NCBI GenBank assembly: GCA_020722815.1
Contig: DYKB01000031.1
Location: forward strand, 1 to 64,000
DNA length: 64,000 nucleotides
Direction: 5' to 3'
DNA from: Caldithrix sp.
GTDB taxonomy: Bacteria; Zhuqueibacterota; Zhuqueibacteria; Thermofontimicrobiales; Sulfurfontimicrobiaceae
Below, one piece after another: positions 6,436-51,178 of this stretch. The notes below the pieces were generated by a model that was not told where the DNA came from, searched no databases, and saw only the letters and a list, made by a program, of their open reading frames with translations. The position numbers were made by a program, and so were the translations under genes. Numbering within the stretch: position 1 is the stretch's first letter; each line of letters starts with the position of its first letter.

Positions 6436-7485
6436 ATGATCATAATCAGGAAAAATGCTCTTTTGAAGGAACTTTCAATTCGAAAACTCATTCAAGCGTT
6501 GAATTTTAAACGGATTTTCAATTTTGTTAAAGTTGAAACTTCATTTTTAATATCAAAATTATTCCATCGGAATATTTGCTGGGGTTTTCCCTATATTTTT
6601 ACCGTGGAACCGGGCAGTCTTTGTAATTTAAAATGCCCCCTCTGTGTTGTTGGAAGCCAAAAGTTGAATCGATTACAGGGATTGATGTCTTATGAACTTT
6701 TTGAACGGTTGCTAAATGAAATTGGCAATTATCTGATTGAAATTTTGCTCTTTAATCAGGGTGAACCCTTTTTACATCCAAAACTAATTGATTTTATCCG
6801 GCTGAGTAAGAAGAAAAAAATATATACCTCTGTCAGTACAAATGGACATTTTTTGACAAATCCCGATAAAGTCCGTGATTTAATTCAAAGCCGGTTGGAT
6901 GTCTTGATAGTTTCGATTGATGGTGCATCGGCTGAAACTTATACAAAATATCGTCATGGTGGAAATTTTCAGCAGGTTATTAGTGGCGTAAAAAAAGTTC
7001 AGTCATTAAAAAGGGAATTGAAAGCCCGTCATCCTGAGATCTATCTGCAATTTTTAGTAACAAGACAAAATGAATCAGAAATTGACGCTATACGACAATT
7101 ATCGCAGGAAATTAAGGCAGATCGTTTACTATTTAAGACATTACAGGTTGAAAATCTCGAAGAAGCAAATTTATATCTGCCCGAAGATGAACGTTTCAGT
7201 CGGTATATCGTTTCACCCGATGGAATAAAGTTAAAACGCAAATCATCATTTACCTGTGGACGACTCTGGCGCAGCAGCGTATTGCTGTCCGATGGACAAA
7301 TTGTCGGGTGCTGTTTCGATAAAAACGCGGAATATCCGGCTGGCCGACTTGATGGAAAGACGCAATTTAAACAAATATGGTATTCAAAAAACTATGCACA
7401 ACTCAGAAATCAGACTTTACATAAACGAACGATTGGCGGCTTATGTGGCAATTGTACCGAAGGCGTTAAAATCTATCACATCTAA
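6436..7485 (+). CDS. Radical SAM/SPASM-like enzyme in a glycan cluster
   Basis: The 349-residue protein has the radical SAM cluster motif in EPGSLCNLKCPLC (CxxxCxxC, about residues 62-69), a GEP segment (FNQGEPFLHP) and a C-terminal cysteine-rich region (CGRLW, GCCFDKN, GGLCGNCTEG) like a SPASM/twitch auxiliary-cluster domain. It lies 12 bp after the glycosyltransferase and before a lipid-flippase-like protein, so a role in modifying a lipid-linked sugar, lipid or peptide is plausible, but no substrate is indicated. Its last bases lie inside the longest frame of the next gene. Confidence 0.85.
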   Translation: MIIIRKNALLKELSIRKLIQALNFKRIFNFVKVETSFLISKLFHRNICWGFPYIFTVEPGSLCNLKCPLCVVGSQKLNRLQGLMSYELFERLLNEIGNYLIEILLFNQGEPFLHPKLIDFIRLSKKKKIYTSVSTNGHFLTNPDKVRDLIQSRLDVLIVSIDGASAETYTKYRHGGNFQQVISGVKKVQSLKRELKARHPEIYLQFLVTRQNESEIDAIRQLSQEIKADRLLFKTLQVENLEEANLYLPEDERFSRYIVSPDGIKLKRKSSFTCGRLWRSSVLLSDGQIVGCCFDKNAEYPAGRLDGKTQFKQIWYSKNYAQLRNQTLHKRTIGGLCGNCTEGVKIYHI

Positions 7486-21848: not shown

Positions 21849-22982
21849 CTATTTTAAAGCTTCCTTACCTTTTAGAAAATCCCGATTACAAGCAAATTCA
21901 TCCATATTCATTGGCCAGGTTCCTGTCAGTATATGATGCGCCATAAACTCGCCCAAGGCCGGTCCGAACATAAATCCATGGCCGCACATGCCACCGCAGA
22001 TATAAAATCCAGGAATTGTCGTTTCACCAATAATGGGATTTCCATCCGGTGTCATACTATATGAACCCGACCATTGACGAATAATCGAAACCTCTTTCAG
22101 CATTGGTACCAGCCGCATCATTCGTCGGGGCATTTCGGTCATAAATTCAAATGTTGAATCGAGATTGTGACCAGGAACCTTTTCAGCCGGTGTGTAACAG
22201 CCAATAAACTGCCCCGTTAAACGCTGCACAAAATAACATCCATCCTTTCGATAATCGACCACCATCGGAACTCGCATAAATTCAATTGGTTCAGTGATCG
22301 CGGCTTCATGACGTTCAGGTTCAACTGGCAAATCCAGTCCTATCATCGCGCCCACCTCTCTGGCGAATGGACCGGCAGCATTTAAAACTTTGGGGGCGAA
22401 ATAAATATCATTATTAGAACAAATCACGCGATAAGAACCAGATGGTGTCATTTCAATGGCAATTACTTCGGCATGCGTGCGAATCTGGCCGTTATTTTTT
22501 TTAATTCCCTGAAAATAGCCTTTTAATACTAAAAAAGGATCGGCCTGCCCATCAGTAGGACAATAGGTTCCACCGATTAAATCCTGGGTATTGATATAGG
22601 GAAATAGCTTTTCAATTTCATTTTTTTCATAAAAGCGAACATCCAGCCCTAATTGCTGCTGAATTTGCATGACATTTAAAAAAGCTTTTTTTCGTTCTTC
22701 ATCATGTGCCAAAAAAAGATAACCCGTTGGCGCCCATTCCACAGAATGACCAAATTCTTTTTCCATTCCCTGAAATAATTCGATACTATGCTTCGCCAAT
22801 TTTATAGAAGTTTCAGTAGAAAATTGTGCCCGAATACCGGAAATGCACCGACCAGTAGAACCAAAGCCAATATAGCTTTTCTCGAGCACCAGAACTGATT
22901 GCTGTTGCTTTGCCAAATAATACGCGGTTGCCAATCCAATTATTCCGCCGCCAACGATGATAATATCAAATTCACGATTCAT
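21849..22982 (-). CDS. FAD-dependent oxidoreductase (proline/sarcosine dehydrogenase beta-like)
   Basis: A 377-residue DAO-family flavoprotein. It starts with the FAD-binding IIIVGGGIIGLATAYYLAK (GxGxxG at 11-16), then the characteristic GFGSTGRCISGIRAQFS, where the family has a conserved GS-T/G-RC-GGIRQQ stretch. The C-terminal FAD motif is GNPIIGETTIPGFYICGGMCGHGFMFGPA. It is the last gene of a four-gene operon whose subunits correspond to dye-linked L-proline dehydrogenase (PDH1 type) of Thermococcales or to heterotetrameric sarcosine oxidase-like systems; this would be the amine-oxidising subunit. It overlaps the upstream BFD-like gene by 11 bases. Confidence 0.85.
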   Translation of the reverse strand: MNREFDIIIVGGGIIGLATAYYLAKQQQSVLVLEKSYIGFGSTGRCISGIRAQFSTETSIKLAKHSIELFQGMEKEFGHSVEWAPTGYLFLAHDEERKKAFLNVMQIQQQLGLDVRFYEKNEIEKLFPYINTQDLIGGTYCPTDGQADPFLVLKGYFQGIKKNNGQIRTHAEVIAIEMTPSGSYRVICSNNDIYFAPKVLNAAGPFAREVGAMIGLDLPVEPERHEAAITEPIEFMRVPMVVDYRKDGCYFVQRLTGQFIGCYTPAEKVPGHNLDSTFEFMTEMPRRMMRLVPMLKEVSIIRQWSGSYSMTPDGNPIIGETTIPGFYICGGMCGHGFMFGPALGEFMAHHILTGTWPMNMDEFACNRDFLKGKEALK

Positions 22983-23250
22983 GTTTTTCTCCTGCCAATA
23001 CCTTAATCGGAATCGCTTTTAAGGGGGGACGATGGGTCATGGGTTCGACTTCTTCTGGTTTAATTCCGGTTTTCTGGACGATAATCTGCTGAATCAGCCG
23101 TCCACAGGTCCGCCCCTGACAGGGTCCCATCCCGGCGCGCAGAAAACGTTTCATTTCATTTAATGAAGTAACCCCCATTTCAATGGCATCCAAAATTTCA
23201 CCATAGGTAATATCTTCACAGCGACAAATTATCGTATCTCTGGTAATCAT
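22972..23250 (-). CDS. BFD-like [2Fe-2S] small subunit
   Basis: A 92-residue protein with the BFD cluster pattern: TIICRCEDITYGEIL gives C9 and C11, and GPCQGRTCGRL gives C44 and C49. Such subunits hold a [2Fe-2S] cluster that links flavin sites in HcnABC, proline and hydroxyproline dehydrogenases. I chose ATG 23250 because AAAGGA sits just upstream; an ATG at 23265 directly abuts the previous stop. It overlaps the downstream flavoprotein, indicating coupled translation. Confidence 0.88.
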   Translation of the reverse strand: MITRDTIICRCEDITYGEILDAIEMGVTSLNEMKRFLRAGMGPCQGRTCGRLIQQIIVQKTGIKPEEVEPMTHRPPLKAIPIKVLAGEKHES

Positions 23251-23265
23251 ATTTTTCCTTTTCAT

Positions 23266-23763
23266 TCATTGTTTTCGTTTAAAAAATCGAATAATCATTG
23301 CATATTTCTTCGGGATGGCAAGAAAGACGATAGGTGTTCGATCAAACGCTTTCGGATTCCGAACCTGAACAACTCGTCCTTCACAAACAACTTTTCCATC
23401 CCGACCCAGGGCTAAAACGGTCTCCCCCTTTTCTGGAAGTGGTAAAAATTCGTAAGGGATTCCCACTTCAGCTTCCGTTTCAGCAAAAATTTCATTAACC
23501 GTAAAAATTGCCAGGCCGGGACAATTCGCGACACAGAGCGTGCAGCCATTACATTTTTCAAAATCTATTTTGGGTGGATTCGTAAGATTTCCTTCAATCG
23601 TAATGGCCTGACGCGGACAAATATCGACACAAGGATTGCAAGGAATTTGCTGAACACATTCAATAATCGCCACTCTTCCCTGTTTTAATCGTGCCGGGGA
23701 AGGTTGATCAAAATCATCTAAAGTCAAGATCCCGTCTTTCAGAAAGCTCATCGATGCTCCCAT
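23266..23763 (-). CDS. Two-[4Fe-4S] ferredoxin-like subunit
   Basis: A 165-residue electron-transfer protein. The first cluster region is ECVQQIPCNPCVDICP and the second CNGCTLCVANCPGLA, the standard bacterial ferredoxin pattern. An unusual C-terminal extension of about 70 residues (EAEVGIPYEFLPLPEKGE, then VCEGRVVQVRNPKAFDRTP) has no cysteines and matches the extended ferredoxin subunits of this dehydrogenase class. The start overlaps the end of the large flavoprotein gene by 16 bases. Confidence 0.87.
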   Translation of the reverse strand: MGASMSFLKDGILTLDDFDQPSPARLKQGRVAIIECVQQIPCNPCVDICPRQAITIEGNLTNPPKIDFEKCNGCTLCVANCPGLAIFTVNEIFAETEAEVGIPYEFLPLPEKGETVLALGRDGKVVCEGRVVQVRNPKAFDRTPIVFLAIPKKYAMIIRFFKRKQ

Positions 23764-25181
23764 GCGATTTTTAATTGATTAATTCCACGACGTGTTTTAT
23801 CACCAAACGGTCCTTCGCGTAGTTTATCCAGTCCGAACCGTGTTTCTGACTTCAAAATTTGGATTTTTTCAGAAGTCCCCACCAGACTCCCGGCGGCAGC
23901 CAGACCAGCCAATCGGCCTTCCAGCATTGCCGATGAAGCCTCTTCAATCCCACTGACGTCGCCAGCAACATATAATCCCGGTACGGTTGTCTGCAGATCA
24001 TCGTCATGAAGCGCAACATTCCCACCCAATGCCGGCAGATATCGCATTTGCGCACCTGCCTGAGATAGAATTTCAGAGGAGGGATTTAAACCCACTGCAA
24101 GACAGATGGTATCCACTTCTTTAATTGATTCAGTACCCGGTATCTCTTCCCATTTTTCATTTAATTGCACGATTTCAACTGCCTCGACTTTATCACTTCC
24201 AATCGCCTGTTTGATAGTATGAGAAGTCAGAATCGGAACCCCCATCCGGGCAATTTTTGAAGCGTGAACCTGATAGGCACCAATGGTGGGTAAGGCTTCA
24301 ACAATCGCGACAACTTCAACACCAGCCTGAAGCAATTGATAACTCACAATCACCCCTATATTCCCGGCACCAACCATGAGAACGCGTTTTCCGGGCAAAA
24401 CGCCATAAACATTCATCAGGGTCTGAACGGCACCAGCCCCATAAACTCCTGGCAAGTCATTGTTTTTGAACGTGAACATATTCTCTGTTGCACCGGTCGC
24501 AATAATGGTTTTGCGGGCGACCACTTTTTTTAATTCACCGGCTTGAATTATTGCCAGCGTATGGGGATGAAAATAGCCAATCACTGAGGTGTCAGTAAAA
24601 AGTTGAACCGGTAACTGCGTTATTTCAGTAATTAATTTTTGAGAAATGTCGATTCCCCGAATTCGGGCATAATGTTCGCGAGACCCGAAAAACATGTGGG
24701 TCTGTTTAATGAGTTGTCCGCCAGGTTGATTGTTTTCATCAAATATCATGCACCGGACCCCAGCTTTGGCCGCATAAATAGCCGCTGAAAGTCCTGCCGG
24801 CCCACCCCCGATAATGGCGATGTCCGTCGTCATGGTGGGAATTGTTCGATTTAAAAAACTGGTTACCGCTTGAGAATTCTCAATCCGGCCTTTACCAGCT
24901 TGATTTCGAACGTGCATTCCTTCTTTCACCAATACCAGGCAAGTTTTTACATTGGGAATACCATCAACTTCCATCAGGCAGGATGAACATTTTCCAATAG
25001 CACAAAAGAATCCACGCGGACGGTTCAGGTGCGGGCTTCGCGATAAAACCCGGACTCCATTTGCATGGAGCGCCGCAGCAATGGTTTCGCCTTCATAAGC
25101 GTCGATTTTCTGATCATTAAAGTAAAAATGGATTAATTTCCCCCGTTTAAATTCCAGTATAGGATGTTCATTTATTCGCAT
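23748..25181 (-). CDS. FAD/NAD(P) oxidoreductase with N-terminal [2Fe-2S] domain (dehydrogenase alpha-like)
   Basis: A 477-residue subunit that should pass electrons between the amine-oxidising subunit and NAD(P) or another carrier. The N-terminal ferredoxin-like domain carries C60, C65, C68 and C81 (FFCAIGKCSSC, VKTC). An FAD-binding motif DIAIIGGGPAGLSAAIY begins near 120, and a second dinucleotide motif, RVLMVGAGNIGVIVSY, near 270. A final FAD segment reads TVPGLYVAGDVSGIEEA. The same two-part architecture occurs in HcnB/OoxA and sarcosine oxidase alpha N-regions. It is the first gene of the four-gene operon. Confidence 0.87.
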   Translation of the reverse strand: MRINEHPILEFKRGKLIHFYFNDQKIDAYEGETIAAALHANGVRVLSRSPHLNRPRGFFCAIGKCSSCLMEVDGIPNVKTCLVLVKEGMHVRNQAGKGRIENSQAVTSFLNRTIPTMTTDIAIIGGGPAGLSAAIYAAKAGVRCMIFDENNQPGGQLIKQTHMFFGSREHYARIRGIDISQKLITEITQLPVQLFTDTSVIGYFHPHTLAIIQAGELKKVVARKTIIATGATENMFTFKNNDLPGVYGAGAVQTLMNVYGVLPGKRVLMVGAGNIGVIVSYQLLQAGVEVVAIVEALPTIGAYQVHASKIARMGVPILTSHTIKQAIGSDKVEAVEIVQLNEKWEEIPGTESIKEVDTICLAVGLNPSSEILSQAGAQMRYLPALGGNVALHDDDLQTTVPGLYVAGDVSGIEEASSAMLEGRLAGLAAAGSLVGTSEKIQILKSETRFGLDKLREGPFGDKTRRGINQLKIAWEHR

Positions 25182-25412: not shown

Positions 25413-25441
25413 TTGACATTGTTCTTTTTTTTCGATATGTT
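25413..25441 (+). promoter_or_regulatory. Predicted sigma70-type promoter upstream of the STAND/radical SAM pair
   Basis: A perfect TTGACA (25413-25418) and TATGTT (25436-25441) are spaced by 17 bases. If used, transcription would start near 25448 and leave a leader of about 390 bases before ATG 25841, including the palindromic element at 25568-25658. Confidence 0.5.
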
Positions 25442-25456
25442 AAATTAGAGGTAGAG

Positions 25457-25516
25457 GTGTATCTGGTGCGTTGTATTGATTTAAAAGCCTCCAGAAGGCG
25501 ATTTCTGGTAGAATGA
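25457..25516 (+). CDS. Possible 19-residue leader peptide
   Basis: Just downstream of the predicted promoter, a GTG preceded by AGAGGTAGAG opens a 19-codon frame ending in TGA. The peptide would be Arg-rich with one Cys (MYLVRCIDL then KASRRRFLVE). It could be a leader or a modification substrate for the radical SAM enzyme downstream, but a frame this short often occurs by chance. No FxSxx-like tail is present. Confidence 0.15.
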   Translation: MYLVRCIDLKASRRRFLVE

Positions 25517-25567
25517 AGGTTCATAAAATGTAAATTTATTTTTTTTATAAAACAACAAGGACAAAAC

Positions 25568-25658
25568 GTATCCCCTCAATAAAGGATGGTGAAATCTACC
25601 CTTTCAAAGGTTTAAAACCTTTGAAAGGGTGTACGAGCATGTTTTATTGAGTGGATAC
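25568..25658. repeat. 91-bp nested palindromic element
   Basis: Outer arms GTATCCCCTCAATAAA (25568-25583) and TTTATTGAGTGGATAC (25643-25658) are inverted at 15 of 16 positions. Inside, 25598-25630 is a perfect palindrome with 16-base arms around a single A. It has the form of a small non-autonomous element or a strong RNA structure. No target duplication is obvious and no U-run follows, so it is not a standard terminator. Confidence 0.85.
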
Positions 25659-25840
25659 CAATCGAGGTATGGAACGGATTCACAGTAACTGAATTTGAAT
25701 AGTCGTGTATTTATGGCGAATAATTTGCTTAACATTTTATTAATACCTGTGTATTAAAATAAAGGATCAGGAATATAATTGGCGGACCTCTCACGAATTC
25801 CGACAGCTCTGATGTTTATTGTTAATAGAGGAGTGGTTGA

Positions 25841-28600
25841 ATGATACAGAAACCGTCCGATTTTATTGGGCGCAAAAAGGAATTTGCTCTCTTTGACCAG
25901 CTTATTCATCAAAAAATGAATCTTGCTATTGTCTGTATTGACGGACCTGGTGGCATAGGAAAAACACGGCTCCTCCAGGAGATTCAGTCTTCGTACCAAA
26001 ATACTCATGGTCTTTTCATCTCCAAAATTTTTGATTTTGATGATCCGGCATATCACATATTTAGAAATTTTCGACTGGCGTTTGCCGAACAATTAAATGC
26101 TGTCATTTTTCGTCCATATTTAAACGCGCTCGAAGATTTTCGGAATATGGAACTGGCAAATGTAAGCCCGGACAAATTATTGATCGAAAGTGAAACAATC
26201 GATCAAATTTTCATTAAATGTTTTAATGAAAACCTGGCAAAAAAACAACGGGTTCTCCTGTTTTTTGATACGCTGGAAACCATCCAGGAAGAATATATCT
26301 GGAAAAATTATCTACTGAAACAAATTTCCGCCTTAAAAAATACCACCATCATTCTTGCCGGCAAAAAACTGCATGAAATTCGTGAAGATCTGGAAGCCCT
26401 GGCCGGAAAAGATTCGATCACATTTGTATCATTACCTGGATTTTCTTTAACAGAAGTTAATGAATATTTTGATTGGCGCCGCATCGGAAAAACTGTCGAC
26501 CCGGAAATGCGGGAAAAGATCCACATTTTAGTCGATGGCAAACCGATTCTCCTCGATCTGGCCATTGATTGGCTTAGCCACGACGTTCCACTGCCTGAAA
26601 TTCTGGAAAAACCACTGGATGAAATTAAAAACTACGACGCAATACAATTAAACGCAGTCCGGGAGCAGTTTGAACAATCGCTGGTTATCGAAGTCCTGAG
26701 CTTCATTAAGCCTATTGACCGGGCAATTCTGGACATGGCGTGCATTCATCGATTTTATAATCCTGATATTATGGCCTTTTTATTGGGCGTATCAGCGGTT
26801 CGCGCCAAAGAAATGATGCGGCATTTAAGTAATTTTACTTTTGTGAGAATTCGGCCGCAAAATAATTACACATTACACGATGAAATGCGCCGGATGGTAA
26901 ACAATTATGCCTGGCCCAAATACGATCCTTTTGGCACGCAAAAAAAGAAGACCCATGCCAGATTGACTGACTATTATTACAGTAAATTGAACGATTTGGA
27001 AAATCAATTACAAATATTTTATGATCAACTGTCTGAAATTCGCAACGAAGGTCATAAAGAACAGGAAATACAAATTTCCAATGAAATTGCCACGCGCGAA
27101 CGTGAATATTGGCTTCTCCGGATTGAGTATTTACATCACGCCTTACGCTCTGATCTGAATAAAGCTTTAAAAATTTTTATCGAAAGTGCCGATAAAGCCA
27201 CTAAACAATTCCGTTATGAATATCGGCGTGCCATTTTCGATGAAATCCTGCATTTTGAACAACATTTTAAATTGCAGGATCAATTTGAAATTTACATTCG
27301 CCAGGCAAAATATCTGCTGGATAAGGGTAAATATGAACAGGCTTATCATGCCTTGCAAAATTTATTGGAGAAACATGCTGATGGTAGTTACCGCGAAATT
27401 GATATTTTGATTCAACTCGGGAACGCGACAATTCGAATGGGACGTCCAAATGAAACGTTACAATATTTCCATCGCGCGCTGGAAATATGCCAACAAAAAC
27501 GTTATAAAAACTGGCTGGGAGTGGTATATAATGAGCTTGGCTGGACAAATCGAATGCTGGGTAAGTGGGATGAAGGAATCAAATATTACGATCTGGCGAT
27601 GGAACATAATCAAAAAATGAAAGATACCATGAATCTTGCTGATACACTCAATAATCAGGGATTCATTTATAACTTAAAAGGGGATTATAGCAGTGCCTTG
27701 ATCTATTGTCAGCAGGCACTGGAAATTCGGCAACAATTGAATTTGATCCGGGATATTGGAATGAGTTATAATACGCTGAGTATCATTTATCGAAACCGGG
27801 GTGATTATGAGGAGTCCCTGAACCATTCCAACAAAGCGCTGGCCATATTTCGGGCACAAAATGACATTGAATGGTTAGGAAAAGTCTATCGGGAACGCGG
27901 TGTGACACGTTGGTTAACCAATCAACTGGATCTAGCCCGTGCGGATATTGAAAAGAGTCTTTCAATCTTTGAAAAATATGAATATAATAATGAGCTCCCC
28001 ACAACCTATTTTCGGCTGGCACATGTGTTATGGGAATCAGGGATGCCAAATTCGCAGCAAATACGGCCCAATTCACGGGAACTTTTTGATCAGGCAGAAA
28101 CTCTTTTCAATCGGAGCATCCACCTTGGTATGGATATTGCCGATATTTATATTACATTCAATAGTCTGTCGGCGTTGATTGAGTTACTTTACGATTATTC
28201 GGAAATTGTCGGGCTCAATCGTGTCTCAGAGTTAAGACAGTTGTACAAAAAGTTACAAAAGTTAGATCAGGAGTCTGATTTTCATTATCCGTTATCAATT
28301 GGCAACGCTGATAGAATTATGGGTGCGGTGGAACAAGATGCTCATCACTTCTCACAGGCATTAAATTTCTACAAAAAAGGATTCCCCCTGATTGCGCGTC
28401 ATAGCAATTATCATCGCTATGCCTTTGACCGAAAAGCACTAACTTTTTTAGATAAAAAAATCTCACAGCTTCCATCCGCTATTGCAAAAAAGTGGTGTGA
28501 AGCTTTAATAGATCATTGGAAAAATGAGCATTTAGACTCGCAGTACCCCGAATTTATTAATTACTGCAAGGTATGGCAGATTCGGGCAAGCTGGAGATAA
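25841..28600 (+). CDS. STAND-like NTPase with C-terminal TPR repeats
   Basis: A 919-residue protein built like a STAND signal-transduction ATPase. The N-terminus DFIGRKKEF leads into the Walker A motif DGPGGIGKTRLLQEI (about 35-42) and Walker B VLLFFDTLE (D143), followed by a winged-helix-like region and a basic, helical middle part. From about residue 490 to 780 there are tandem TPR units such as GKWDEGIKYYDLAM, GDYSSALIYCQQALEI and GDYEESLNHSNKALAI. STAND proteins usually sense a ligand through the repeats and oligomerise. Its start follows GAGGAG. The gene is 39 bp from a radical SAM/SPASM gene, an arrangement recalling FxsT/FxsB of the actinobacterial FxSxx peptide system. Confidence 0.88.
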   Translation: MIQKPSDFIGRKKEFALFDQLIHQKMNLAIVCIDGPGGIGKTRLLQEIQSSYQNTHGLFISKIFDFDDPAYHIFRNFRLAFAEQLNAVIFRPYLNALEDFRNMELANVSPDKLLIESETIDQIFIKCFNENLAKKQRVLLFFDTLETIQEEYIWKNYLLKQISALKNTTIILAGKKLHEIREDLEALAGKDSITFVSLPGFSLTEVNEYFDWRRIGKTVDPEMREKIHILVDGKPILLDLAIDWLSHDVPLPEILEKPLDEIKNYDAIQLNAVREQFEQSLVIEVLSFIKPIDRAILDMACIHRFYNPDIMAFLLGVSAVRAKEMMRHLSNFTFVRIRPQNNYTLHDEMRRMVNNYAWPKYDPFGTQKKKTHARLTDYYYSKLNDLENQLQIFYDQLSEIRNEGHKEQEIQISNEIATREREYWLLRIEYLHHALRSDLNKALKIFIESADKATKQFRYEYRRAIFDEILHFEQHFKLQDQFEIYIRQAKYLLDKGKYEQAYHALQNLLEKHADGSYREIDILIQLGNATIRMGRPNETLQYFHRALEICQQKRYKNWLGVVYNELGWTNRMLGKWDEGIKYYDLAMEHNQKMKDTMNLADTLNNQGFIYNLKGDYSSALIYCQQALEIRQQLNLIRDIGMSYNTLSIIYRNRGDYEESLNHSNKALAIFRAQNDIEWLGKVYRERGVTRWLTNQLDLARADIEKSLSIFEKYEYNNELPTTYFRLAHVLWESGMPNSQQIRPNSRELFDQAETLFNRSIHLGMDIADIYITFNSLSALIELLYDYSEIVGLNRVSELRQLYKKLQKLDQESDFHYPLSIGNADRIMGAVEQDAHHFSQALNFYKKGFPLIARHSNYHRYAFDRKALTFLDKKISQLPSAIAKKWCEALIDHWKNEHLDSQYPEFINYCKVWQIRASWR

Positions 28601-28639
28601 TACCAAAATTACAGGAATCTCTAAGTAAAAGGATTTACA

Positions 28640-29779
28640 ATGACGACAATCTGCACAGCATCGAAAGATGATGTTTTCGCAATTAATTCTCTAATGGGCG
28701 CGAGATTTCCAGTCAATAATATCCTCGATAATAAATTCTGGCGTGATTTGGATTTTTATTGTAAATGTGATTGTATCACACCCAGCATTATTCCCCGGGA
28801 TATTCCAGCCCTGCCTGATCCTAAAATCTGTTATCTGGAACTAACCACCCAATGCAACCAACGCTGCGCCGGCTGCACTTTCTGCACTGAAAATTCACCG
28901 ACGGCAACCAATCGAACATTGACGATTCGTGAATGGACCATCATATTAAAAAAATTGGCGCCAGGAGTCCAGCGAATTCAGTTGACAGGGGGTGAACCGA
29001 CACTCTATCCGCACTTCTATGAATTGATTCAAATAATTGAACAAACGAACATTCCATATGTTATTTTTACAAATGGTTGCTGGAATGAGCCTGCCCGGCT
29101 TTTGTCGTTTTTAAAATCCGGTCAAAATTTTCGTGGTTTTTTAATTTCACTCCACGGCACAACCCCGCAAACACATAAAAAATTCACCCGAATCGACGGT
29201 TCCTTTGAGCGAACGATTCAAAATATTCAATTAGCAGTGAAATATGGCTTTTCGGTTTTTACCAGCAGCGTTATATTTCCGGGCAACGTAGCTGAATTAA
29301 ACGAAATCCCAAAATATGCACAAAGTCTCGGTGCCGAATATTCCATTTTTAATCGATATATTGGTCATGCCCCCGCTGAAATTCTGATGGACCCATTGAA
29401 ACTGAAAGAAGCGATACAGGGATTGGAGCAGCTTATCCAGAAAGGATCACCCGTTCGATTTGGAAATTGTATTCCACAATGTTTTATTCCCACCTCATCA
29501 AGCGGTTGTCTGGCTGGTACGGCATTCATGAGTATCGATGCGTATGGCAATGTAAAACCATGCAATCATGCGAATTTAAAATGCGGAAACCTGCTCAATC
29601 AGTCACTGCAGGAAATCTGGAATTCACCCATGATGTCCTTATGGCGCCAGGCATTTTCACCAAATTGTTTGCAATGTGCTCAATTTTCAAATTGTCATGG
29701 TGGTTGTCGGGCAGAGGCATTTCGGCTTGGAAGAATTGAAGATCCATTGGTTCAACCATCTCCATTCATTAAAAATTGA
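28640..29779 (+). CDS. Radical SAM/SPASM protein paired with the STAND ATPase
   Basis: A 379-residue enzyme with the radical SAM motif in LTTQCNQRCAGCTFC (CxxxCxxC), the LTGGEPTLYP SAM-binding segment and a C-terminal SPASM region whose cysteines are in CLAGTAFMS, KPCNHANLKCGNLL and CLQCAQFSNCHGGCRAE. SPASM enzymes often modify peptides (RiPP maturases) or activate proteins. An N-terminal extension of about 70 residues has two close cysteines (FYCKCDC) of unknown role. It follows the STAND gene by 39 bp with an AAAGGA site. No precursor peptide is evident nearby, so the substrate could be in trans or be a host protein. Confidence 0.87.
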   Translation: MTTICTASKDDVFAINSLMGARFPVNNILDNKFWRDLDFYCKCDCITPSIIPRDIPALPDPKICYLELTTQCNQRCAGCTFCTENSPTATNRTLTIREWTIILKKLAPGVQRIQLTGGEPTLYPHFYELIQIIEQTNIPYVIFTNGCWNEPARLLSFLKSGQNFRGFLISLHGTTPQTHKKFTRIDGSFERTIQNIQLAVKYGFSVFTSSVIFPGNVAELNEIPKYAQSLGAEYSIFNRYIGHAPAEILMDPLKLKEAIQGLEQLIQKGSPVRFGNCIPQCFIPTSSSGCLAGTAFMSIDAYGNVKPCNHANLKCGNLLNQSLQEIWNSPMMSLWRQAFSPNCLQCAQFSNCHGGCRAEAFRLGRIEDPLVQPSPFIKN

Positions 29780-49831: not shown

Positions 49832-49921
49832 TTTCTTATGTATTTCCTTTTTATTTAGAACAAACTGAATCGATTTTATAGCAAAATATTAATGAATTGA
49901 ACTGTGAATTTCAAGGAAAAA

Positions 49922-51178
49922 ATGATGGAATCGACATTTCAACCACGAAAAAAAATACTCAACTCGGTATTAATTAAACCAGCCGGGCCTGATTGCAATA
50001 TGGCGTGCACCTATTGCTTCTATCTCGAAAAATCTGAATTATTCAAGACCCAGTCAGTTCACCGGATGAGCGATGAAATTGCCAGCGAGACTATCCGTCA
50101 GGTGATGCAACAGGGGGGACAACAGGTCTCCTTTGGCTGGCAGGGAGGCGAACCGACGCTCATGGGGGTGAAATTCTTTGAAAATTGCATCAACTGGCAG
50201 CAAAAATTTGGCCGCCCGGGACAGGTGGTGGGAAATGGCCTGCAGACCAATGGCATCCTGATCAATAAAAAATGGGCTAATTTTCTGCATGATGCCAAAT
50301 TTCTGGTGGGATTGTCCTTAGATGGACCACAACATATCCATGATCGCTATCGAAAACGACGGGGTGGTCAATCCAGTTGGGCGCGGGTGGCGCGTGCCAG
50401 GGATATTATGCTCGATACCGGTGTAGAAGTGAATGCTTTGATTGTTGTAAATGATTATTCCGTCAAATTTCCGGAGGAAATTTATCAATATCATAAAGAA
50501 AATGGCCTGGTCTTTATGCAATTCATTCCCTGCGTGGAACCGGATCCATTTAATCCCGGTCAGGCAGCTTCTTTCAGCGTTTCCGCAGCGGATTATGGCG
50601 TTTTTCTCTGTAAACTTTTCGATCGCTGGATAAACGATTTTGAAGATGGTCGCCCAACAACTTCCGTTCGCTGGTTTGATTCGCTTTTTTATACCTATGT
50701 CAATTTACCGGCCCCCGAATGCACGCTATATCCGGAGTGTGGAATTTATGTGGTCATTGAACATAATGGCGACGTCTATTCCTGTGACTTTTTCGTTGCT
50801 CCTGAATGGCGGCTGGGGAACGTCATGGAGGGGAATCTGGTTGATTTTTTAAACAGTCCTTTACAAAATCATTTTGGACGGGTTAAATCAAATTATCCCC
50901 CCGAATGTATTGACTGCATCTGGCTGCCTCATTGCTGGGCGGGATGTCCCAAAGACCGCCAATCCGATGTTCGAGATAACGGTTCCAATCATTTTTGCCA
51001 ATCATATAAAGTCTTTTTTGAACACGCTGATAAAAAATTTCGCGAGTTAGCCGATAAGTGGATTAAAGAGCAACGGCTTCTTCGCGCACAACCTTATCTA
51101 AAAACCACCGGTCGAAATGATCCTTGTCCCTGCGGGAGTGGCTTAAAATTCAAAAAGTGCTGTGGAAGTAAAATTTAG
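49922..51178 (+). CDS. Anaerobic sulfatase-maturating enzyme (radical SAM/SPASM)
   Basis: A 418-residue enzyme that should convert the active-site Cys or Ser of sulfatases to formylglycine. The radical SAM motif is in CNMACTYCFYLEKSELF, typical of anSME; SFGWQGGEPTLMG and GNGLQTNGILI follow. Two SPASM clusters are ligated by cysteines in APECTLYPECGIY, YSCDFF, CIDCIWLPHCWAGCPKDR and CQSYKVFF. The C-terminus adds a SEC-C-type zinc motif, NDPCPCGSGLKFKKCCG, right before TAG. ATG 49922 lies 5 bases after AAGGA. The likely client in this window is the Cys-type sulfatase at 15705. Confidence 0.93.
   Translation: MMESTFQPRKKILNSVLIKPAGPDCNMACTYCFYLEKSELFKTQSVHRMSDEIASETIRQVMQQGGQQVSFGWQGGEPTLMGVKFFENCINWQQKFGRPGQVVGNGLQTNGILINKKWANFLHDAKFLVGLSLDGPQHIHDRYRKRRGGQSSWARVARARDIMLDTGVEVNALIVVNDYSVKFPEEIYQYHKENGLVFMQFIPCVEPDPFNPGQAASFSVSAADYGVFLCKLFDRWINDFEDGRPTTSVRWFDSLFYTYVNLPAPECTLYPECGIYVVIEHNGDVYSCDFFVAPEWRLGNVMEGNLVDFLNSPLQNHFGRVKSNYPPECIDCIWLPHCWAGCPKDRQSDVRDNGSNHFCQSYKVFFEHADKKFRELADKWIKEQRLLRAQPYLKTTGRNDPCPCGSGLKFKKCCGSKI

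What the first reader, a model, noticed from the sequence alone, without database searches (positions are those of the whole stretch)
25413..29779. STAND/TPR ATPase and radical SAM/SPASM two-gene system with a structured leader
A large STAND-like ATPase with TPR sensor repeats is directly followed by a radical SAM/SPASM enzyme with an unusual Cys-containing N-terminal extension (FYCKCDC). The combination of a TPR/NTPase and a SPASM enzyme is known from the FxsT/FxsB (FxSxx-COOH) peptide systems of actinobacteria, but here there is no FxSxx-like peptide or FxsC, and the proteins look divergent. STAND proteins often sense invaders or signals; a peptide-modifying enzyme as output would be new. 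Function is inference from architecture.
Basis: partly seen in the sequence, partly recalled or inferred. Interest (0 to 1): 0.68.

Follow-up and report, generated by a model that had tools for sequence, protein, structure and literature searches.

The report
STAND switch paired with SPASM enzyme
Two neighbouring genes encode an immune-receptor-like molecular switch and an iron-sulfur enzyme of a peptide-modifying type; the same rare partnership recurs in distant bacteria beside protease genes, so it is probably a real, undescribed variety of bacterial conflict (defence-like) system.

Summary
A 919-aa STAND/TPR ATPase (25841-28600) is followed 39 nt later by a 379-aa radical SAM/SPASM enzyme (28640-29779) with the N-terminal motif FYCKCDC. 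The STAND protein belongs to a small, sharply bounded family: leave-one-out HMM 416 bits versus at most 96 for other STAND proteins. In all nine genomes where I found the family, a radical SAM/SPASM gene with an N-terminal CxC motif lies downstream. In 386 cyanobacteria, separate searches with each partner hit the same three genomes. CxC occurs in 8/8 STAND-linked enzymes (about four independent lineages) and in 0/35 other radical SAM proteins. Relatives add Trypco1, trypsin and EAD9-NTPase genes (cyanobacteria) or a CHAT protease (same class), which are building blocks of published NTP-dependent conflict systems. The window copy has no protease or peptide gene, and its radical SAM domain is from another subfamily, yet keeps the Cys motif. 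FxsT/FxsB membership was tested and not met. The "structured leader" is a dispersed ~91-nt palindrome with about 30 copies in the genome. Mechanism is inferred: the STAND protein is the switch, the SPASM enzyme a linked protein or peptide modifier. New variant of a known kind.

The parts
25841..28600 (+). STAND/TPR ATPase, 919 aa: nucleotide-binding domain from residue 8, winged helix with LHD motif, long TPR superhelix; no fused effector domain
   Evidence: AlphaFold mean pLDDT 81.8, best PDB match 6mfv STAND-TPR, E 1e-13
25943..25966 (+). Walker A motif GPGGIGKT (residues 35-42)
   Evidence: G37, G38, G40, K41, T42 invariant in nine family members
26873..26887 (+). LHDEM (residues 345-349), MHD-like motif of the winged-helix domain
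   Evidence: L345, H346, D347 invariant in nine family members; the equation with the MHD motif is from knowledge of NB-ARC proteins
28640..29779 (+). Radical SAM/SPASM enzyme, 379 aa, without the ~100-aa region that the relatives carry between the Cys motif and the radical SAM core
   Evidence: best fold matches SuiB, SkfB, PqqE
28754..28774 (+). FYCKCDC: N-terminal CxC motif shared by all STAND-linked radical SAM proteins found
28853..28876 (+). CNQRCAGC, radical SAM [4Fe-4S] motif
   Evidence: C72, C76, C79 invariant in 15 aligned sequences
29507..29707 (+). SPASM cysteines (C290, C308, C343, C346, C352, C356)
   Evidence: Pfam SPASM 8.5e-11; C308, C343, C346, C352, C356 invariant, C290 invariant in the STAND-linked set
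25568..25658 (.). Dispersed palindromic repeat (the 'structured leader'); not part of the system

Best explanation
The two genes form one functional module of the NTP-dependent conflict (defence-like) class. Shown by sequence: the STAND/TPR protein has an intact P-loop, an LHD winged helix and a TPR sensor but no effector domain of its own, and it co-occurs with a radical SAM/SPASM enzyme that carries an N-terminal CxC tail. Inferred: the TPR array senses a trigger, ATP exchange switches and oligomerises the STAND protein, and the STAND platform recruits or licenses the SPASM enzyme, perhaps through its Cys tail. The enzyme then modifies a protein or peptide of the module (a radical-made crosslink or thioether is most likely for this enzyme type). 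In relatives the effect is passed on by a trypsin-like or CHAT protease encoded in the same operon. In the window copy any protease would have to act in trans or has been dispensed with.
For: Full-length co-linear homology of the STAND proteins across phyla (E 2e-49; 4e-30), with the C-terminal TPR tail specific to the family (leave-one-out 108 bits vs 34). Neighbourhood holds in both search directions: STAND queries led to L036 and L045, both with a radical SAM gene; radical SAM queries led to six further cyanobacteria, all with the STAND gene immediately upstream. Both partners hit the same 3 of 386 cyanobacterial genomes. 0 of 39 other STAND loci has a convincing radical SAM neighbour. CxC in 8/8 linked versus 0/35 other radical SAM proteins. 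Companion genes Trypco1, trypsin+EAD9, EAD9-NTPase, CHAT are parts of published conflict systems (PMC7159879).
Against: The window's radical SAM domain is no closer to the relatives' enzyme than generic radical SAM proteins are (23.8 bits, rank 44), so two lineages of enzyme are involved. The window has no protease, Trypco or EAD gene and no visible substrate. No defence activity or trigger is known. The family is rare: 2 of 82 genomes in the phylum. PADLOC gives only generic matches.
Confidence: 0.45

Rival explanations
1. The radical SAM enzyme is a constitutive maturase: it modifies its own Cys tail or a component of the module (STAND protein or protease) so that the switch is competent, rather than being the triggered output.
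For: The Cys tail is part of the enzyme itself in all members; the relatives' core is nearest to PapB-type thioether maturases, though far below cut-off; no separate conserved short peptide gene was found.
Against: The number of Cys in the tail varies (2 to 4) and it has no constant core sequence; self-modification by a SPASM enzyme has not been tested here.
Confidence: 0.22
2. The CxC tail binds an extra metal or Fe-S centre, making the radical SAM protein a redox or oxygen-sensing partner of the STAND switch, with no peptide product.
For: Clustered cysteines CKCDC, CDCDGGDCAC, DCDCAC in a Fe-S protein.
Against: One member (L036) keeps only DCAC, two Cys, too few for a [4Fe-4S] site alone.
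Confidence: 0.13
3. The window pair is a chance or degenerate neighbourhood: a STAND gene that lost its operon and lies next to an unrelated radical SAM gene.
For: The radical SAM domain is of another subfamily and the protease genes are missing.
Against: Same strand, 39-nt gap, same order as relatives, isolated between two - strand genes, and the CxC tail is retained although absent from 35 other radical SAM proteins (for the window alone Fisher p = 0.028).
Confidence: 0.12
4. It is an FxSxx-COOH-like RiPP system whose small precursor gene was missed.
For: TPR-STAND plus SPASM enzyme is the FxsT/FxsB theme (PMC7159879).
Against: FxsT model 51 bits against a cut-off of 300, TPR part only; the FxsB model is not among the best 25 for the window enzyme; no FxSxx-like peptide in the flanks and no short ORF shared between loci except Trypco1 (whose printed output was cut).
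Confidence: 0.05

Closest known systems
FxSxx-COOH peptide systems with FxsT (TPR) and FxsB (radical SAM/SPASM), VMAP-type conflict systems (PMC7159879)
   Same: A TPR/STAND-type protein and a SPASM enzyme in one locus; peptide- or protein-modifying chemistry is the inferred role
   Different: No vWA, MoxR, zincin, FxSxx peptide or FxsC seen beside the window pair; family models not met; the STAND protein belongs to a different, tightly bounded family
Trypco1/trypsin/EAD conflict systems of multicellular bacteria (PMC7159879, PMC10907252)
   Same: The cyanobacterial relatives encode Trypco1, trypsin-EAD9 and EAD9-NTPase beside the pair
   Different: In the main text of those papers I found no radical SAM partner for a Trypco1/EAD9/STAND-TPR operon; the window copy lacks the protease part
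STAND protein with TPR sensor, PDB 6mfv
   Same: STAND nucleotide-binding domain plus TPR array; best fold match
   Different: TM-score only 0.43 to the query; a link of 6mfv to a radical SAM partner was not examined
PapB/ranthipeptide and other SPASM peptide maturases (SuiB, SkfB, PqqE)
   Same: Radical SAM plus SPASM fold; the relatives' enzyme scores best with PapB; the window enzyme folds like SuiB/SkfB/PqqE
   Different: All curated cut-offs missed by a wide margin; no precursor gene

Membership tests
FxSxx-COOH system (FxsT/FxsB/FxsA/FxsC) | TPR protein reaches NF040586 (FxsT) cut-off of 300 bits | tested here: not met
   51.0 bits, TPR part only
FxSxx-COOH system (FxsT/FxsB/FxsA/FxsC) | SPASM enzyme reaches TIGR04269 (FxsB) cut-off of 370 bits | tested here: not met
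   Not among the best 25 for the window enzyme; 50.7-58.6 bits for the relatives' enzymes
FxSxx-COOH system (FxsT/FxsB/FxsA/FxsC) | Short FxSxx-COOH precursor beside the genes | tested here: not met
   Small ORFs in the leader and downstream gap read; cross-locus comparison
HaaT/HaaA cyclophane RiPP system | TPR protein reaches NF041717 cut-off of 1125 bits | tested here: not met
   46.0 bits
STAND ATPases | P-loop NTPase with winged helix followed by repeat sensor | tested here: met
   AAA_16 and TPR hits, invariant GGxGKT and LHD, fold match 6mfv
Avs-type antiviral STAND | Fused N-terminal effector domain | tested here: not met
   The nucleotide-binding domain begins at residue 8; no Avs model matched in PADLOC
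Avs-type antiviral STAND | Recognition of phage proteins | not testable with these tools
   Needs an infection assay
Trypco/EAD protease conflict systems | Trypsin or caspase-type protease with Trypco or EAD partner in the locus | tested here: not met
   Met in relatives L112 and L045 (L036 has CHAT); not seen beside the window pair, whose flanking genes are metabolic
Radical SAM/SPASM enzymes | CxxxCxxC and SPASM cysteines | tested here: met
Named SPASM peptide maturase families (PapB, SkfB, PqqE, mycofactocin and others) | Curated NCBIfam cut-off | tested here: not met
   Best window hit AhbD 104.6 of 500 bits; mycofactocin 85 of 265

The most novel reading that the evidence does not exclude
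An NLR-like bacterial STAND receptor uses a radical SAM/SPASM enzyme, bearing its own Cys-rich substrate or docking tail, to make a radical-installed crosslink as a step of immune signalling, upstream of or in place of a protease.
Probability: 0.15. Interest if true: 0.85.

Novelty: new variant of a known kind. Interest (0 to 1): 0.58.

Why it matters
It links two fields that, as far as I found, have met only in the FxSxx- and FtsH-type systems: STAND immune-type switches and radical SAM chemistry. If the Cys tail is a substrate or docking site, it would show how a STAND switch controls a post-translational modifier, and the compact five-gene cyanobacterial operon (or the two-gene window version) makes that directly testable.

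Tried and rejected
Close relatives of the window radical SAM enzyme: none in genome contigs, viral contigs or plasmids, and at most 31% identity in the phylum. Specific structured leader: rejected, dispersed repeat. Rfam: no match. FxsT/FxsB and HaaT membership: rejected. Avs and viperin membership: PADLOC pVip matches at 1e-13 are generic radical SAM core hits, and viperins lack SPASM (the latter from general knowledge). Short peptide gene: none seen shared between loci; an 81-aa Cys-containing ORF upstream in most cyanobacterial loci is missing in L112, so it is synteny and not part of the system. Virus occurrence: none in IMG/VR. A CHAT gene elsewhere in the own genome: ten matches exist, too common to assign as partner. 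Literature: no paper on this pair found; supplementary files could not be read.

Full report
Observation. The window (contig C74 of a 7.3-Mb genome) carries a STAND/TPR gene at 25841-28600 and a radical SAM/SPASM gene at 28640-29779, both on + and 39 nt apart, isolated between - strand genes for an FAD oxidoreductase complex and a thioredoxin-like protein. Each ATG is preceded by a purine-rich Shine-Dalgarno-like stretch (read directly from the sequence). Pfam finds AAA_16, NACHT-like and TPR matches in the first protein and Radical_SAM plus SPASM in the second. The GC content of the two genes (0.39, 0.42) matches the window (0.41).

Leader. The strong fold upstream (z = -5.0) is a nested palindrome at 25568-25658. 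About 30 copies at roughly 80-99% identity lie across the genome. It is a REP- or MITE-like repeat and not a specific leader. No peptide gene is evident among the small ORFs on either side.

STAND family. In 82 genomes of the phylum the only full homologue is in G052 (L036), 22% identical over 754 residues, E 4e-30, co-linear to the C-terminus. A scan of 85,000 species genomes found a second in a Leptolyngbyaceae cyanobacterium (L045), E 2e-49 over the whole length. A leave-one-out HMM without the window scores the window protein at 416 bits (whole), 212 (ATPase) and 108 (C-terminal TPR); the best non-family STAND proteins reach 96, 60 and 34. This is a bounded family, not shared TPR background. 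Walker A and an LHD (MHD-like) motif are invariant. The AlphaFold model (mean pLDDT 82, pTM 0.60) matches the STAND-TPR structure 6mfv best (E 1e-13). There is no fused effector domain.

Partner. Both STAND hits lie upstream of a radical SAM/SPASM gene: directly in L036, and after a trypsin and a Trypco1 gene in L045. Going the other way, the relatives' radical SAM profile found two more genomes in a cyanobacterial sample of 386 and four more within one order. All six have the STAND gene directly upstream, within the order Trypco1, trypsin-EAD9, EAD9-NTPase, STAND/TPR, radical SAM (domains were assigned by HMM in L112 and by matching sequence and length in the others). A blind STAND search of the same 386 genomes returned exactly the same three genomes (identical sets by chance would be 1 in 9.5 million, ignoring relatedness and the E <= 1e-20 limit with only the top candidates scored per genome). 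The six cyanobacteria are related to each other, so the independent lineages number about four: this cyanobacterial clade, L045, L036 and the window. Of 39 loci with other STAND proteins none has a convincing radical SAM neighbour (one weak 17-bit hit; some of these loci are short).

Cys motif and swapped enzyme. All linked radical SAM proteins carry a CxC motif upstream of the radical SAM core: GQCDCDGGDCACD (cyanobacteria), DCDCAC (L045), DCAC (L036), CKCDC (window). It is present in 8/8 linked and 0/35 other radical SAM proteins, whose N-termini were taken from the first possible start codon (four lineages against 35, Fisher p about 1e-5; window alone p = 0.028). Many of the control N-termini are shorter than the relatives', which weakens the contrast somewhat. 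The window enzyme lacks the ~100-aa region that follows the motif in the relatives; that region aligns with the N-terminal part of QhpD-type maturases (TIGR03906) and is RRE-like by inference. Its core is not specifically related to theirs (23.8 bits, rank 44); it scores best with AhbD/NirJ2-type models, far below cut-off. The simplest reading is an enzyme exchange that kept the STAND gene and the Cys tail, but convergence cannot be excluded. The model of the window enzyme (mean pLDDT 69, N-terminus below 50) matches SuiB, SkfB and PqqE, so the fold supports a SPASM enzyme without fixing a substrate.

Comparison with what is known. Kaur et al. (PMC7159879) describe SPASM enzymes with FxSxx peptides in VMAP systems, and another radical SAM protein in FtsH systems; Trypco1 and EAD9 are described there as protease-associated and signalling-recruiting domains. 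In the main text I found no Trypco1/EAD9/STAND-TPR/radical SAM operon; supplementary tables could not be read, and most subscription papers are not in the library. FxsT, FxsB and HaaT cut-offs are missed widely.

Mechanism and verdict. Shown: the pair, its conservation, the Cys motif, and the companions in relatives. Inferred: sensing by the TPRs, ATP-driven switching, recruitment of the SPASM enzyme, modification of a protein or peptide, and protease output in relatives. Nothing here shows defence activity or a substrate. The finding is a new variant of conflict-type STAND systems, rare but real, with an untested chemical step.

Noticed in passing
window 25568-25658: Nested ~91-nt palindrome present about 30 times in the 7.3-Mb genome at roughly 80-99% identity: a REP/MITE-like repeat family.
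   Followed up: partly
window 49904-51178 (+): A second radical SAM/SPASM gene, above the cut-off for anaerobic sulfatase maturase (TIGR03942, 402.7 bits against 349.45).
   Followed up: partly
window 6589-6996 (+): Another weak radical SAM match (E 5.5e-4) in a 353-aa open frame; not examined.
   Followed up: no
window 21849-25181 (-): Three- or four-gene FAD/ferredoxin oxidoreductase cluster resembling sarcosine/amino-acid oxidase subunits (SoxA/SoxB-like).
   Followed up: partly
L036 5192-7690 and 12076-12462: AAA-CHAT protease gene about 10 nt upstream of the STAND homologue, and a 128-aa fragment-like GxxExxY (PDDEXK_3) gene downstream of the radical SAM gene.
   Followed up: partly
L121 4463-4708 (and equivalents in L113, L122, L123, L124): Conserved 81-aa ORF with a Cys-containing C-terminus upstream of the cyanobacterial operon, missing in L112.
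   Followed up: partly
G052, G001 and G000 whole genomes: Many CHAT-domain proteins: 37 matches in G052, 14 in G001, 10 in G000.
   Followed up: no
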